Part shown: positions 43,895-63,124 of the stretch, piece by piece | Layout of the letters: every line of letters starts with the position of its first letter | How positions within the stretch are numbered: position 1 is the stretch's first letter | Source of the DNA: Clostridia bacterium | GTDB taxonomy: Bacteria > Bacillota > Clostridia > Christensenellales > Aristaeellaceae | Direction: 5' to 3' | Length of the DNA stretch: 64,000 nucleotides | Assembly (NCBI GenBank): GCA_017410455.1 | Contig: JAFQQT010000010.1 | Location: 1-64,000, forward strand | Notes under the pieces: generated by a model | What the model was told of the DNA's origin: nothing | The model's database searches: none | The model's input: the letters and a program-made list of their open reading frames with translations, nothing else | Position numbers and translations under genes: made by a program

Positions 43895-44359
43895 TCACGT
43901 CAACGGCTTGAGGTAGACGTCCGCCTGGTTCTTTGCACTGATCCCCTTCTGCAGCCGGTAGCCCTGCCTTTCGTAGAACCCCGGCGCCGTATCCGTGGTC
44001 AGGATGGCATAGCCGCAGCCCAGCTGGGCAAAGTGCTTCTCCGCCAGGCGGAGCAGGGCGGTTCCGTGCCCCTGCCCGCGGAGTTCCGGGGCGACCCAGA
44101 ATTCCTCCACGCAGCCCAGCCGCGCCGTGTAGAAGCCACGCCCCGCCGTTGCCGCCTCCAGCATCGCGAACAGCAGGAAGCCCGTCACCGTGCCTTCAGT
44201 ATCCCTGCGGACAAACAGGCAGTCCGGCGAGGTGCTGATCTCCGCAAACAGCCCCTCCCAGTTGGTCACCTGCACGCCCAGCTCGCCGTAGTAAGCGCGG
44301 AACGCCCTCTGCAGCGCCGCATCGGTCATGTCCGTCATCAGCGTATCGGTATACATCAT
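43895..44359 (-). CDS. GNAT acetyltransferase behind a leader peptide and terminator
   Basis: A 154-residue GNAT enzyme: EEFWVAPELRGQGHGTALLRLAEKHF is the acetyl-CoA binding segment (R-G-Q-G-H-G) and GFYERQGYRLQKG the C-terminal motif. Three ATGs in a row (44362, 44359, 44356) follow AAGGGAG; I use the middle one. The gene has no promoter directly before it: transcription comes from 44538-44567, passes an 18-codon leader gene and a strong intrinsic terminator, so expression is probably conditional. Substrate unknown; antibiotic acetylation is one possibility given this layout. Confidence 0.9.
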   Translation of the reverse strand: MMYTDTLMTDMTDAALQRAFRAYYGELGVQVTNWEGLFAEISTSPDCLFVRRDTEGTVTGFLLFAMLEAATAGRGFYTARLGCVEEFWVAPELRGQGHGTALLRLAEKHFAQLGCGYAILTTDTAPGFYERQGYRLQKGISAKNQADVYLKPLT

Positions 44360-44382
44360 CATTTTCTCCCTTTCACCGCAGC

Positions 44383-44413
44383 AAAAAGCGCGCTCCGGTC
44401 TGCGAAGCGCGCT
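44383..44413 (-). terminator. Terminator (attenuator candidate) between leader peptide and GNAT gene
   Basis: Minus strand AGCGCGCT (44406-44413) and AGCGCGCT (44387-44394) form an 8-base perfect stem with an 11-base loop, directly followed by TTTTT. It sits 21 bases before the GNAT start codon region. Confidence 0.85.
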
Positions 44414-44450
44414 GGTTTTCCGCCATATCAAAGGGAGGGGCTGCTGCGTG

Positions 44451-44507
44451 TCACCGCGCCCCCCGTGAACGGCAGATCGCTCCGAACCGGGCCTGAATCA
44501 CGAACAT
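44451..44507 (-). CDS. Leader peptide MFVIQARFGAICRSRGAR
   Basis: An 18-codon open frame with an ideal ribosome binding site (AAGGAGGTGAGC) before the ATG at 44507, 31 bases downstream of a strong promoter, ending in TGA at 44451-44453. It lies upstream of an intrinsic terminator and the GNAT gene. It is too short to be a usual protein; its position and RBS strength fit a regulatory leader peptide whose translation decides read-through. Confidence 0.65.
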   Translation of the reverse strand: MFVIQARFGAICRSRGAR

Positions 44508-44537
44508 ACCGCTCACCTCCTTCACATCGTTACCCCG

Positions 44538-44567
44538 ATTTTACCATCCTGCGCCATCAGCTGTCAA
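44538..44567 (-). promoter_or_regulatory. Promoter of the leader peptide/GNAT unit
   Basis: Minus strand perfect TTGACA (44562-44567), 18 bases, TAAAAT (44538-44543). Confidence 0.8.
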
Positions 44568-44599
44568 GCAAGATATCCCCATTCACCCGCAAAATCACT

Positions 44600-44628
44600 T
44601 TGCCAAACCCACCACGATATGCTATGAT
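44600..44628 (+). promoter_or_regulatory. Promoter of the GNAT-GH43 fusion gene
   Basis: TTGCCA (44600-44605), 17 bases, TATGAT (44623-44628). The AT-rich string AATTCATAATTC lies in the leader at 44656-44682. Confidence 0.7.
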
Positions 44629-44705: not shown

Positions 44706-46853
44706 ATGATGAACCTCACCCCCTTCGGCATGACCTGGAACGGCGACTGGAACCTCTTCACCCGCATGGCCGCGGCCTACCAGCAGGAGCTGTCCCTGCC
44801 CGACGGCCTGAGCGCCCCGGAGGTGCGCACGCGGCTGATCCAGCGCTGCCAGCACCAGCACAACCCGCTCATCCTGCGCAAGATCGACGTCGATGGCGCC
44901 TGCGTGGGCTTCATCTGCTGCACGGTGGATGACGACGCCCACGCCGCCTCCCTCCTGGCCATCACCCTGTGGGCAGACAAGCGCCGTCAGGGCCACGGCA
45001 GTGCCGCGCTGCGCCGCCTGGAGCGGGAGCTGCGCCAGCGGGACGTGACCCGCGTGACCCTCGCCGGCGCGCCGCAGTGCCTGCCCTTCTGGGAGAAGCA
45101 GGGCTACGCCTATGCCGGGGACAGCTGCAGCAAGGCCCTCCCCCGCCGCAACGAGACCGCCCCCGTGCAGCTGCTCATCTACACCCGCGAGCCGCTGGAC
45201 GAAAGTATTTACGCCCCCAAGCTGGCCGACAGCGTCCACTTCGCCCTGATCGAAGACGGCGAGTGCATGCCCCTGCTGCACAACAGCGGCGTCGTGTACG
45301 CCAGAGCCGTCCCGGGCGAGATGGGCGTGCTGCACCCCTACAGCCTGCGCAGGCCCTGGCTGATCCGGCTGGGTGGCCATCCCCGGCCCTGGGCGATCCT
45401 CGCCGAGCGCATCGAGTGCGACGGCACGCCGGATGCCGCCAGCGAGGATCACGTTCTCCTCTTCATCAGCGACGACCTGATCCACTGGGTGGAGCAGCCC
45501 CTGCTGCACATCAGCGACCCGCTGGCCCAGGAGTACCTCGACAAGCGCCGGCAGCAGCCCGACCTGCCCGGCCTTGACCTGCCCGAGGGCTGCATCCCCG
45601 GCAATGTCGTGCCCCTCAGCGAGGCCGCCGCCCGCCGCCTGCGCACCCGCTTCCTCACCCCGGTGAACGTAAGCAACGACGTGCCCGCCGAGGTGGAGGC
45701 CGCCTCCCCCGCCGACCTGGCCGATGTGCGCGCCACCGCCCGCTATTCCGACGGCAGCAGCGTCGTCAAGCGCGTGGACTGGGATACCCGCGCCATCGAC
45801 TGGACGAAACCCGGCCGGTACGGGATCGCAGGCCGCGTCCATCAGGACCGCTACGAGTTCCCCTCCATGTGGAACAAGGCTGACCCTGCCGTCTGCCGCT
45901 GGCAGGGCAGGTACTACTTCATCTCCACCAACGACCTGGACGGCAACCACACCCTCTTCATCCGCGAGGCGGACAGCCTCCCCGGGCTGGTCACCGCCCA
46001 GCAGACCTGCATCCTCGATACCACCATGTACCCCCATCTGGGGAGCCTGCTCTGGGCGCCGGAGTTCCATGAGATAGGCGGCAAACTCTACATCTTCCAC
46101 GCCGGCACCCCCGGCCCCTTCGGGCAGGAGCAGAGCCATGTCATGGCCCTGAAGCCCGGCGGAAACCCCATGAAGGCCGCCGACTGGGAGATGCCCCGCC
46201 GCGTTGTGAAGAAGGACGGCTCAATGCTCTACGACAAGGGCATCACCCTGGACATGACGGTCTTCTGGTCCGCCGGGCGGCTGTACGCCAGCTGGTCGCA
46301 GCGGCAGTTCGACCCCGTTGATCTGGGCGCGTGGCTCTACATCGCCGAGCTGGATCCCGCGGAGCCCTGGCGGCTGCTCAGCGACCCGCAGGTGCTGACC
46401 GTCCCCGAGTACGGCTGGGAGAACAACCACACCTTCGTGGTGGAGGGCCCCTTCGCCCTCAAGCAGGGCGGGCGCATCCTGCTGACCTACTCCGGCGCGC
46501 TGGTGGACAGCACCTACGTCGTGGGCCTGCTCTCCATGGCGGATGGCGCGGATCCCCTCGACCCGGCCAGCTGGACGAAGGAGAACTATCCCCTGCTGAC
46601 CTCGCGGAGCGTGCCGGGCGAGTTCGGCCCCGGCCACAACGCCTACGTCATCGACGGGGACGGCCTGATCTGGAACACCTACCACGCCCGCCCCGGCGTG
46701 ATGGTGGACGGCAGGCAGGGCTTCGGCCCCCGCTCCTCCGGCATCCGCCGCGTCCACATGAACGCAGAAGGCTTCCCCATCCTGGACATGACCGAAGAGA
46801 TGGATCTCGACCCGAAGCTGGCGTGGGTGAAGACCACCGTCACCGTGAAATAA
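44706..46853 (+). CDS. GNAT domain fused to a GH43-like five-bladed propeller with Ig-like insert
   Basis: A 715-residue cytoplasmic protein. Residues 1-155 are a GNAT domain (ITLWADKRRQGHGSAALRRL, then FWEKQGYAYAG). Residues about 165-320 begin a GH43/GH32-type propeller (HPYSLRRPWLIRLGG, LLFISDDLIHW); about 325-382 is an Ig-like group 4 domain (ATARYSDGSSVVKRVDWD); 385-715 complete the glycosidase with the acidic residues in WNKADPAV, LLWAPEFHEIGG and FVVEGPFALKQGG. AGGAGG precedes the ATG. The frame is continuous. Likely acts on arabinose- or xylose-containing oligomers; the acetyltransferase part is unusual and may handle the same substrate. Confidence 0.88.
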   Translation: MMNLTPFGMTWNGDWNLFTRMAAAYQQELSLPDGLSAPEVRTRLIQRCQHQHNPLILRKIDVDGACVGFICCTVDDDAHAASLLAITLWADKRRQGHGSAALRRLERELRQRDVTRVTLAGAPQCLPFWEKQGYAYAGDSCSKALPRRNETAPVQLLIYTREPLDESIYAPKLADSVHFALIEDGECMPLLHNSGVVYARAVPGEMGVLHPYSLRRPWLIRLGGHPRPWAILAERIECDGTPDAASEDHVLLFISDDLIHWVEQPLLHISDPLAQEYLDKRRQQPDLPGLDLPEGCIPGNVVPLSEAAARRLRTRFLTPVNVSNDVPAEVEAASPADLADVRATARYSDGSSVVKRVDWDTRAIDWTKPGRYGIAGRVHQDRYEFPSMWNKADPAVCRWQGRYYFISTNDLDGNHTLFIREADSLPGLVTAQQTCILDTTMYPHLGSLLWAPEFHEIGGKLYIFHAGTPGPFGQEQSHVMALKPGGNPMKAADWEMPRRVVKKDGSMLYDKGITLDMTVFWSAGRLYASWSQRQFDPVDLGAWLYIAELDPAEPWRLLSDPQVLTVPEYGWENNHTFVVEGPFALKQGGRILLTYSGALVDSTYVVGLLSMADGADPLDPASWTKENYPLLTSRSVPGEFGPGHNAYVIDGDGLIWNTYHARPGVMVDGRQGFGPRSSGIRRVHMNAEGFPILDMTEEMDLDPKLAWVKTTVTVK

Positions 46854-62585: not shown

Positions 62586-62658
62586 GGGAGCATAGCTCAG
62601 CTGGGAGAGCATCTGCCTTACAAGCAGAGGGTCACAGGTTCGAGCCCTGTTGTTCCCA
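62586..62658 (+). tRNA. tRNA-Val (TAC)
   Basis: Cloverleaf with acceptor GGGAGCA/TGTTCCC, D-loop AGCTCAGCTGGGAGAGC, anticodon loop CTTACAA giving TAC, T-loop TTCGAGC. CCA is not encoded. Confidence 0.96.
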
Positions 62659-62684
62659 CTCCTCGAAAGAGGACTTACAAATAT

Positions 62685-62761
62685 GGCCCGGTAGCTCAGT
62701 CGGTTAGAGCGCCAGCCTGTCACGTTGGAGGTCGAGGGTTCGAGCCCCTTCCGGGTCGCCA
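62685..62761 (+). tRNA. tRNA-Asp (GTC)
   Basis: Acceptor GGCCCGG/CCGGGTC with discriminator G, anticodon loop CTGTCAC giving GTC, T-loop TTCGAGC. The 3' CCA is encoded, unlike in the other four tRNAs. Confidence 0.96.
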
Positions 62762-62769
62762 TCATATTT

Positions 62770-62842
62770 GCCTCGGTAGCTCAGTCGGTAGAGCAGCAGA
62801 CTGAAAATCTGCGTGTCGGTGGTTCGATTCCGCCCCGCGGCA
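62770..62842 (+). tRNA. tRNA-Phe (GAA)
   Basis: Acceptor GCCTCGG against CCGCGGC, with a T-C mismatch at the fourth pair; anticodon loop CTGAAAA giving GAA; T-loop TTCGATT. CCA is not encoded. Confidence 0.93.
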
Positions 62843-62850
62843 CACTTCAT

Positions 62851-62923
62851 GCGGTAGTAGCTCAGTTGGTAGAGCGCCACCTTGCCAAGGTGGAGGTCGC
62901 GAGTCCGAGCCTCGTCTACCGCT
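62851..62923 (+). tRNA. tRNA-Gly (GCC)
   Basis: Acceptor GCGGTAG/CTACCGC perfect, anticodon loop TTGCCAA giving GCC, T-arm GCGAG-TCCGAGC-CTCGT in which the normally invariant T55 is C. CCA is not encoded. Confidence 0.92.
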
Positions 62924-62932
62924 CTCTTTTAT

Positions 62933-63035
62933 AGGCTGGGTTTTCCAGTCTGTAATGAGGTCGGGCTTCAGCCCGACTAGCGACAGCGATTGCTTGCAAT
63001 CGCCGAGCGTAGCCAGCACGCGGCTTTACGCCGTG
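62933..63035 (+). repeat. Cluster of four hairpins between tRNA-Gly and tRNA-Cys
   Basis: Successive palindromes: AGGCTGG/CCAGTCT (62933-62951), GTCGGGC-TTCA-GCCCGAC (62960-62977), GCGATTG-CTTG-CAATCGC (62986-63003), CGGC-TTTAC-GCCG (63021-63034). The third shares its core with the repeat at 30281. No T-tracts, so not terminators; perhaps processing signals or a REP-like mobile repeat. Confidence 0.7.
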
Positions 63036-63047
63036 GGATGGCCGATT

Positions 63048-63119
63048 GGTGCCATGGCCAAGTGGTAAGGCAAAGGTCTGCAAAACCTTTATTCCCCAGT
63101 TCGAATCTGGGTGGCACCT
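63048..63119 (+). tRNA. tRNA-Cys (GCA)
   Basis: Acceptor GGTGCCA/TGGCACC perfect, short D-loop, anticodon loop CTGCAAA giving GCA, T-loop TTCGAAT. CCA is not encoded. Confidence 0.95.
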
Positions 63120-63124
63120 CTCCA

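What the first reader, a model, noticed from the sequence alone, without database searches (positions are those of the whole stretch)
43895..44567. Leader peptide and intrinsic terminator in front of a GNAT gene: candidate attenuation switch
On the minus strand, a strong promoter (TTGACA-N18-TAAAAT) is followed by an ideal RBS and an 18-codon frame (MFVIQARFGAICRSRGAR), then a perfect 8-base hairpin with TTTTT, then the acetyltransferase with its own RBS. The G-run at the 3' end of the leader frame (CGGGGGGCGCGG) faces a C-run (CAGCCCCTCCC) shortly after it, so an alternative hairpin competing with the terminator is possible. This is the architecture of antibiotic-induced attenuation known for erm and cat genes; the seen parts are direct, the mechanism is inferred. 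The leader sequence is not one I recognise.
Basis: partly seen in the sequence, partly recalled or inferred. Interest (0 to 1): 0.85.

Follow-up and report, generated by a model that had tools for sequence, protein, structure and literature searches.

The report
Ribosome-sensing switch before acetyltransferase genes
In gut bacteria, a tiny leader gene folded into an RNA switch sits before acetyltransferase genes and appears to turn them on when ribosomes jam at its first codons, much like the known switch of an antibiotic-resistance gene in Bacillus subtilis.

Summary
In detail: promoter, ideal RBS, 18-codon frame, terminator and GNAT gene are all there on the minus strand, and the arrangement is conserved. 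I compared 14 distinct leaders: 11 before single GNATs related to the window's and 3 before a different, 316-aa double GNAT. One of the 14, from another family, was found by an RNA model that knew nothing of the terminator. It looks like an attenuator, but not with the pairing named, and probably not with an arrest peptide: only Met1, Cys12 and Ser14 are invariant. Comparative folding gives an anti-antiterminator hairpin P1 (SD/start codon with codons 12-15), an antiterminator AT (codons 7-10 with the terminator's 5' strand and loop) and the terminator T. In masked folding, a ribosome on codons 1-2 gives AT in 13 of 13 leaders; at the sampled codons 5-14 it gives at most 0.01. I infer antitermination by ribosomes stalled at the start, as in the vmlR leader. 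Weak points: no expression data, AT already wins without a ribosome in some leaders, and swap controls are not clean. A stem over the GNAT SD is a possible second layer. Inducer and GNAT substrate are unknown. New member of a known kind.

The parts
44538..44567 (-). sigma-70-type promoter TTGACA-N18-TAAAAT of the leader transcript
   Evidence: 11 of 12 matches; a TTGAC(A/G) box lies upstream of the leader in the 13 sequences printed; L263 lacks it
44451..44507 (-). leader ORF, 18 codons + TGA: MFVIQARFGAICRSRGAR; SD AAGGAGG at 44522-44516
   Evidence: 18 codons in 12 and 17 in 2 of 14 leaders, ATG start, TGA/TAA stop, frame open in 14 of 14
44465..44516 (-). P1, proposed anti-antiterminator hairpin: 44516-44507 (end of SD to the A of the start codon) with 44474-44465 (codons 12-15), 10 pairs plus an inner stem
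   Evidence: 99.2% of 132 cells paired over 12 sequences; changes on both sides at 2 of 11 pairs
44478..44489 (-). AT strand a: leader nt 19-30 (codons 7-10), proposed 5' half of the antiterminator
44396..44409 (-). AT strand b: upper part of the terminator 5' strand plus loop, partner of leader nt 19-30
44383..44413 (-). T: intrinsic terminator, 11-pair stem, loop 5, T-run
44430..44437 (-). P3 5' strand (CUCCCUUU) after the leader stop; also usable by the P2 hairpin
44366..44374 (-). P3 3' strand = GNAT Shine-Dalgarno GAAAGGGAG
43895..44362 (-). GNAT acetyltransferase (155 aa), substrate unknown

Best explanation
The 5' UTR is a ribosome-controlled transcription attenuator of the anti-antiterminator / antiterminator / terminator type. 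Supported by comparison: hairpin P1 joins the leader's SD and start codon to codons 12-15; segment AT (codons 7-10) is complementary to the terminator's 5' strand and loop; AT excludes T, and in nested folding it excludes P1. Inferred: without a stalled ribosome P1 forms, T forms and transcription stops. A ribosome held on the first two codons (the third depends on the assumed footprint) covers P1's 5' strand; its leading edge ends just before the AT strand (nt 18-19), AT pairs with the emerging terminator 5' strand before T can close, and RNA polymerase reads on into the GNAT gene. A ribosome further inside the leader covers AT, and termination follows. In the window, AT also frees the GNAT SD, a possible second check. 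The peptide sequence is probably not the sensor. The likely signal is an inhibitor that freezes ribosomes at start codons, and the GNAT is a candidate detoxifying enzyme; both are guesses.
For: P1: 99.2% of 132 cells paired over 12 sequences, against 29.5-47.7% with the partner slid by 1-3 columns. AT: over 8 representatives native leader-terminator pairs average -10.1 kcal/mol against -7.6 for all pairings, 38 of 40320 permutations as good; double-GNAT leaders give -10.8 with their own terminators and on average -2.2 with the type-A ones. L263, found in another family by a model of leader and P1 only, again has its best terminator match at nt 21 of the leader and precedes a GNAT 44% identical to the window's. 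Ribosome masking: P(AT) at least 0.97 with the P-site on codon 1 or 2 in 13 of 13 leaders, 0.00 at codons 5, 6, 8, 10 and 12 and at most 0.01 at 14; 8.2% of 195 shuffled leaders reach 0.97 at codon 1. Three of four footprint sizes give 13 of 13 at or above 0.9 for codon 1, the smallest 12 of 13. Leader frame open in 14 of 14. The same logic is supported by experiment for vmlR (PMC9226507, abstract and two results sections read).
Against: No expression data. Without a ribosome AT already wins at equilibrium in the three double-GNAT leaders (0.50-0.91) and L263 (0.99) and reaches 0.47 in L087. With T complete, T wins: mean 0.71 with a ribosome on codon 1, 0.90-1.00 elsewhere, so control must be kinetic. 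A ribosome near the stop also gives AT in the double-GNAT leaders, in L263 (0.78 at codon 14) and partly in L088 (0.60 at codon 17). Swaps are not clean: type-A leaders average -6.3 with double-GNAT terminators, some foreign pairs beat native ones, exchanged strands still give P(AT) 0.06-0.76 and 0.09-0.95, and L001 and L091 leaders reach -16.0 and -16.6 with L263's terminator against -17.6 for its own. In L001, L096 and L101 another leader stretch matches the terminator better. On the A3 alignment 63 of 500 shuffles reach the AT covariation score. Smallest footprint: one leader at 0.18 for codon 1. The GNAT SD gains little or no access in the AT state in 5 of 13 leaders (L087, L088, L098, L101, L113).
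Confidence: 0.62

Rival explanations
1. Arrest-peptide attenuator as in erm/cat: a drug in the exit tunnel makes the ribosome stop at the conserved AICRS stretch and so exposes the GNAT start.
For: AICRS is present in 9 of the 10 type-A leaders (L088 has AICCS); Ala10, Ile11, Cys12 and Ser14 are constant in those 10.
Against: In the double-GNAT leaders the stretch reads ENFCHS and in L263 REFCHS; only Cys12 and Ser14 remain, inside a P1 strand. A ribosome at codons 5, 6, 8, 10 or 12 gives no antiterminator in any of 13 leaders.
Confidence: 0.13
2. Read-out of completed translation: a ribosome pausing at the leader stop codon blocks P1's 3' strand and leaves AT free, so good translation rather than stress turns the gene on.
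For: In the window the stop codon begins 11 nt after P1's 3' end; masked folding gives AT of 0.98-1.00 for codons 16-18 in the three double-GNAT leaders and 1.0 for 16-17 in L263; L088 reaches 0.60 at codon 17.
Against: In the other nine type-A leaders AT stays at or below 0.17 for codons 16-18.
Confidence: 0.13
3. Plain constitutive gene with a leaky terminator and a conserved but unregulated leader.
For: No expression data; T is more stable than AT once complete.
Against: Co-variation of P1, AT and the SD stem; the same layout before a different GNAT.
Confidence: 0.07
4. The short ORF encodes a functional peptide (RiPP, toxin or substrate of the GNAT).
For: It is conserved and next to a GNAT wherever the gene is visible.
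Against: The peptide drifts outside the paired RNA positions and a terminator separates it from the GNAT.
Confidence: 0.04

Closest known systems
vmlR leader of Bacillus subtilis (PMC9226507; abstract and two results sections read)
   Same: Short uORF inside an anti-antiterminator stem; overlapping antiterminator; intrinsic terminator; a hairpin over the SD of the gene that the induced fold disrupts; two of three natural uORF variants tested there work as well as the native one, the third less; toeprint at +16 from the start codon, just before where AT begins here.
   Different: The vmlR uORF is 3 codons (MIN) and the gene an ABCF ATPase; here 17-18 codons that also run through the AT strand, and GNAT genes. 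I did not test sequence homology to the vmlR leader.
toiL uORF of E. coli topAI-yjhQ (PMC12121999; abstract and one results section read)
   Same: A uORF that senses ribosomes stalled at its start codon (tetracycline; retapamulin also induces). That YjhQ is a GNAT is my recollection, not from a call.
   Different: toiL acts on translation of topAI and, through it, on Rho-dependent termination; here an intrinsic terminator is the main switch, and the leader is followed directly by a GNAT.
yxjB leader of B. subtilis (PMC6851288; abstract and section titles seen)
   Same: Leader peptide, terminator plus SD-sequestering hairpin.
   Different: Needs tylosin-dependent stalling during leader peptide synthesis; the gene methylates 23S rRNA.
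erm/cat attenuators (recalled)
   Same: Leader ORF before a resistance-type gene.
   Different: Classical forms act mainly on translation and depend on the arrest-peptide sequence; here the peptide is not kept and a terminator is present.

Membership tests
ribosome-mediated transcription attenuator (AAT/AT/T) | translatable uORF upstream of the regulated gene | tested here: met
   frame open in 14 of 14, SD and ATG present; translation itself not measured
ribosome-mediated transcription attenuator (AAT/AT/T) | intrinsic terminator between uORF and gene | tested here: met
   13 sequences; L263
ribosome-mediated transcription attenuator (AAT/AT/T) | antiterminator that shares a strand with the terminator | tested here: met
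   weaker on the A3 alignment alone and swap controls not clean
ribosome-mediated transcription attenuator (AAT/AT/T) | anti-antiterminator that a ribosome on the uORF disrupts | tested here: inconclusive
   P1 is conserved and masked folding fits in most type-A leaders, but AT wins without a ribosome in the double-GNAT leaders and L263
ribosome-mediated transcription attenuator (AAT/AT/T) | condition-dependent read-through | not testable with these tools
   needs RNA or reporter data
vmlR leader family | homology to the vmlR leader | not tested
   the vmlR sequence was not fetched; no Rfam family matched the region up to E 5
vmlR leader family | hairpin hiding the SD of the gene, opened in the induced fold | tested here: inconclusive
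   complementarity: 15 of 40320 permutations as good; effect on the SD large in L001 and L095, small or absent in others
erm/cat arrest-peptide attenuator | conserved arrest peptide | tested here: not met
   only Met1, Cys12 and Ser14 invariant over 14 leaders; within the 10 type-A leaders AIC and Ser are kept
amino-acid (trp-type) attenuator | run of codons for one amino acid in the leader | tested here: not met
   the 14 peptides show no such run beyond two or three neighbouring Val in some
known Rfam riboswitch or leader family | covariance-model match | tested here: not met
   gathering, whole window: tRNAs only; 44300-44620, E up to 5: none

The most novel reading that the evidence does not exclude
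A peptide-independent sensor of start-codon-stalled ribosomes has been placed before at least two only distantly related GNAT types in gut Clostridia, with a long uORF that also keeps the gene off when ribosomes stall further in; the GNATs would then be undescribed resistance enzymes against inhibitors of early translation.
Probability: 0.25. Interest if true: 0.75.

Novelty: new member of a known kind. Interest (0 to 1): 0.55.

Why it matters
It gives a compact, conserved, testable attenuator from mostly uncultured gut Clostridia, with a covariance model to find more. If the reading holds, the leader reports which drugs freeze ribosomes at start codons and points to two GNAT groups as candidate, so far unassigned, detoxifying enzymes. 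It also illustrates how a conserved short peptide can be largely a by-product of RNA pairing and not an arrest peptide.

Tried and rejected
Rejected: the G-run/C-run hairpin as competitor of the terminator (but for the window's G-run end against the terminator strand); an arrest peptide and trp-like codon runs; a known Rfam element; plasmid carriage (window GNAT: no match; double GNAT: 11 records, all below 60% identity and none covering 80%); anti-phage defence models (no match). Weak model hits that on inspection I judged not to be leaders: 5 of 11 genomes, 7 of 22, 5 of 7, 3 of 4 matches. GNAT substrate: no NCBIfam cut-off reached; solved relatives are diverse GNATs. One search was a script that failed and was rewritten. 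Literature: no paper on such a GNAT leader was among the titles and abstract starts listed in searches, which cover only the held open-access library; one search listed 15 of 16 and one search listed 5 of 13.

Full report
OBSERVATION. On the minus strand the window holds TTGACA-N18-TAAAAT, an AAGGAGG SD, an 18-codon frame (44507-44451), a terminator (44413-44383) and a GNAT gene (44362-43895). The terminator stem is 11 pairs.

RELATIVES. A genome-collection scan with a GNAT alignment gave 22 loci, nearly all metagenome-assembled Clostridia and relatives; several titles name sheep, goat and deer gut, and some 'Lapin', which I read as rabbit. Of the 22, 10 have the same leader (two of these, L098 and L099, nearly identical), 1 starts too close to the gene to tell (L097), 3 have a different 13-codon leader (two of them from one assembly), 7 read on from coding sequence upstream, which I take for a fused GNAT domain (checked only for L103), and in 1 I saw no leader. 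An RNA model of leader plus P1 was then run on whole genomes. R1, built from 10 leaders before single GNATs, matched 11 of 396 genomes of the order; 6 are real, and two of these were new: G101 and G107 (E about 9e-5), where the leader precedes a 316-aa double GNAT. R2, built with these two added, matched 22 of 308 genomes of the family; 15 are real (E 2.4e-16 or better, most of them the model's own sequences or near copies) and 7 weak ones are not leaders. In 14 of the 15 a GNAT follows; in the fifteenth (G030) the contig ends at the terminator. In the class R2 matched 7 of 391 genomes, 2 real: the window's own and L263, from another family; L263 precedes a GNAT 44% identical to the window's. 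The double GNAT was found in 3 of 45 genomes of its genus; it shares only a weak match with the window's GNAT (E 0.010, 23% over 87 positions). The working set is 14 distinct leaders: the window and 9 relatives of the first group, 3 double-GNAT leaders (L113, L114, L128) and L263.

P1. The end of the leader SD through the A of the start codon pairs with codons 12-15. In 12 sequences 99.2% of 132 cells are standard pairs, 2 of 11 pairs show changes on both sides, and sliding the partner by 1-3 columns leaves 29.5-47.7%. It appears in the minimum-energy fold of each of the 10 leaders folded singly, although by energy alone several of those folds are no better than shuffles.

ANTITERMINATOR. Leader nt 18-30 matches the terminator's own 5' strand: CGGAGCG with CGCUUCG in the window, GAAAGCA with UGCUUUC in L096, AUUGAGAAC with GUUCUCGAU in the double-GNAT leaders, UUCGGGAA with UUCCCGAA in L263. 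A leader CCGG is constant in the first 13 leaders and pairs with a loop segment in many; the computed duplexes begin at nt 18-21. Over 8 representatives native pairs average -10.1 against -7.6 kcal/mol, with 38 of 40320 permutations as good; without the double-GNAT group 38 of 5040. The clearest case is the double-GNAT leaders: -10.8 with their own terminators, on average -2.2 with type-A ones. In the other direction the contrast is weak (type-A leaders average -6.3 with double-GNAT terminators), and some type-A leaders bind a foreign type-A terminator better than their own. L263's own pair is the strongest tested (-17.6), but the L001 and L091 leaders reach -16.0 and -16.6 with its terminator and its leader reaches -13.3 with L113's. 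The codons 8-10 stretch ranks between 2nd and 14th among the 62-65 12-mers of its leader; the worst rank (14 of 65) is the window's own, whose G-run end pairs better with the terminator strand (-15.7), and L096 and L101 also have a better stretch elsewhere. On the A3 alignment 100% of 65 cells pair, but 63 of 500 shuffles reach the covariation score.

RIBOSOME POSITION. I folded the transcript up to the start of the terminator's 3' strand with the ribosome footprint masked. With the P-site on codon 1 or 2, P(AT) is 0.97-1.00 in 13 of 13; at codons 5, 6, 8, 10 and 12 it is 0.00 and at 14 at most 0.01 in all 13; without a ribosome it averages 0.23, at most 0.14 in nine type-A leaders but 0.47 in L087 and 0.50-0.91 in the double-GNAT leaders. 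L263 gives 0.99 without a ribosome, 1.0 at codons 1-2, 0.0 at the sampled codons 4-12 and 0.78 at codon 14. Of 195 shuffled leaders 8.2% reach 0.97 at codon 1 (mean 0.30); with strands exchanged between the two GNAT types P(AT) is 0.06-0.76 one way and 0.09-0.95 the other, so exchange lowers but often does not abolish it. Other footprints keep 12-13 of 13 at or above 0.9 for codons 1 and 2; codon 3 ranges from 12 to 0 of 13. Once T is complete it wins at equilibrium (mean 0.71 at codon 1, 0.90-1.00 elsewhere), so antitermination has to be kinetic; the vmlR paper notes that an antiterminator can form first.

PEPTIDE. Over 14 leaders only Met1, Cys12 and Ser14 are invariant. The Cys12-Ser14 codons form P1's 3' strand, and Arg at position 7 (13 of 14) lies in the AT strand. 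Translation seems to matter: the frame is open in 14 of 14, the other frames are closed in 5 of 14 each, and the length is 18 codons in 12 and 17 in 2. So the frame is kept while the peptide largely follows the RNA pairing. This argues against the arrest-peptide reading, though within the 10 type-A leaders AIC and Ser are constant.

SECOND LAYER. The stretch after the leader stop is complementary to the stretch between T-run and GNAT start, which holds the GNAT SD; 15 of 40320 permutations of 8 representatives are as good as the native set, although single native pairs are not always the best. L263 shows the same complementarity (-13.2). In the window the SD is unpaired with probability 0.14 in the T state and 0.84 in the AT state, but the mean over 13 is 0.37 and 0.52 and several leaders show no gain. 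I regard this as a possible extra check, not as shown.

WHAT IT IS LIKE. The layout matches the model published for the B. subtilis vmlR leader: uORF inside an anti-antiterminator, antiterminator, intrinsic terminator, SD-hiding hairpin, with stalling on the uORF as the signal (PMC9226507). E. coli toiL shows that start-codon stalling by tetracycline can be read by a uORF (PMC12121999). It works like these; homology to either was not tested. No Rfam family matches.

LIMITS. The link to antibiotics rests on analogy and on the patchy occurrence of the GNATs: 25 of 100 relatives at E 1e-3, many of these weak, and 2 of 341 genomes of the class at E 1e-15, one of them the window's own.

Noticed in passing
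window 44706-46853 (+): The divergent gene next door fuses an N-terminal GNAT domain to a GH43 glycoside hydrolase (Pfam); a relative lies beside the GNAT in L087 (63% over 559 aa).
   Followed up: no
L093, L094, L106 upstream of position 2001: The same GNAT group has another short leader there (MKRKNDTGRACGS / MKRKNHMRRASGS) whose last codons form the 5' half of a terminator-like hairpin ending just before the GNAT SD; possibly a second, different attenuator. R2 does not match these loci.
   Followed up: partly
just upstream of the terminator, e.g. window about 44425-44412: A GGAAA or AGAAA stretch followed after a few bases by CAG or GAG precedes the terminator in the 13 leaders of both GNAT types shown; no role assigned.
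   Followed up: no
L035/L067, L066, L074: Nearly identical leaders in genomes of two genera (g14 and g30), suggesting recent transfer or assembly contamination.
   Followed up: no
L090, L100, L102-L105, L108: Relatives in which the GNAT reads on from coding sequence upstream, apparently a second GNAT domain, without the leader (the L103 product has GNAT matches in both halves).
   Followed up: partly
window 62586-63120: Cluster of five tRNA genes (Val, Asp, Phe, Gly, Cys).
   Followed up: no
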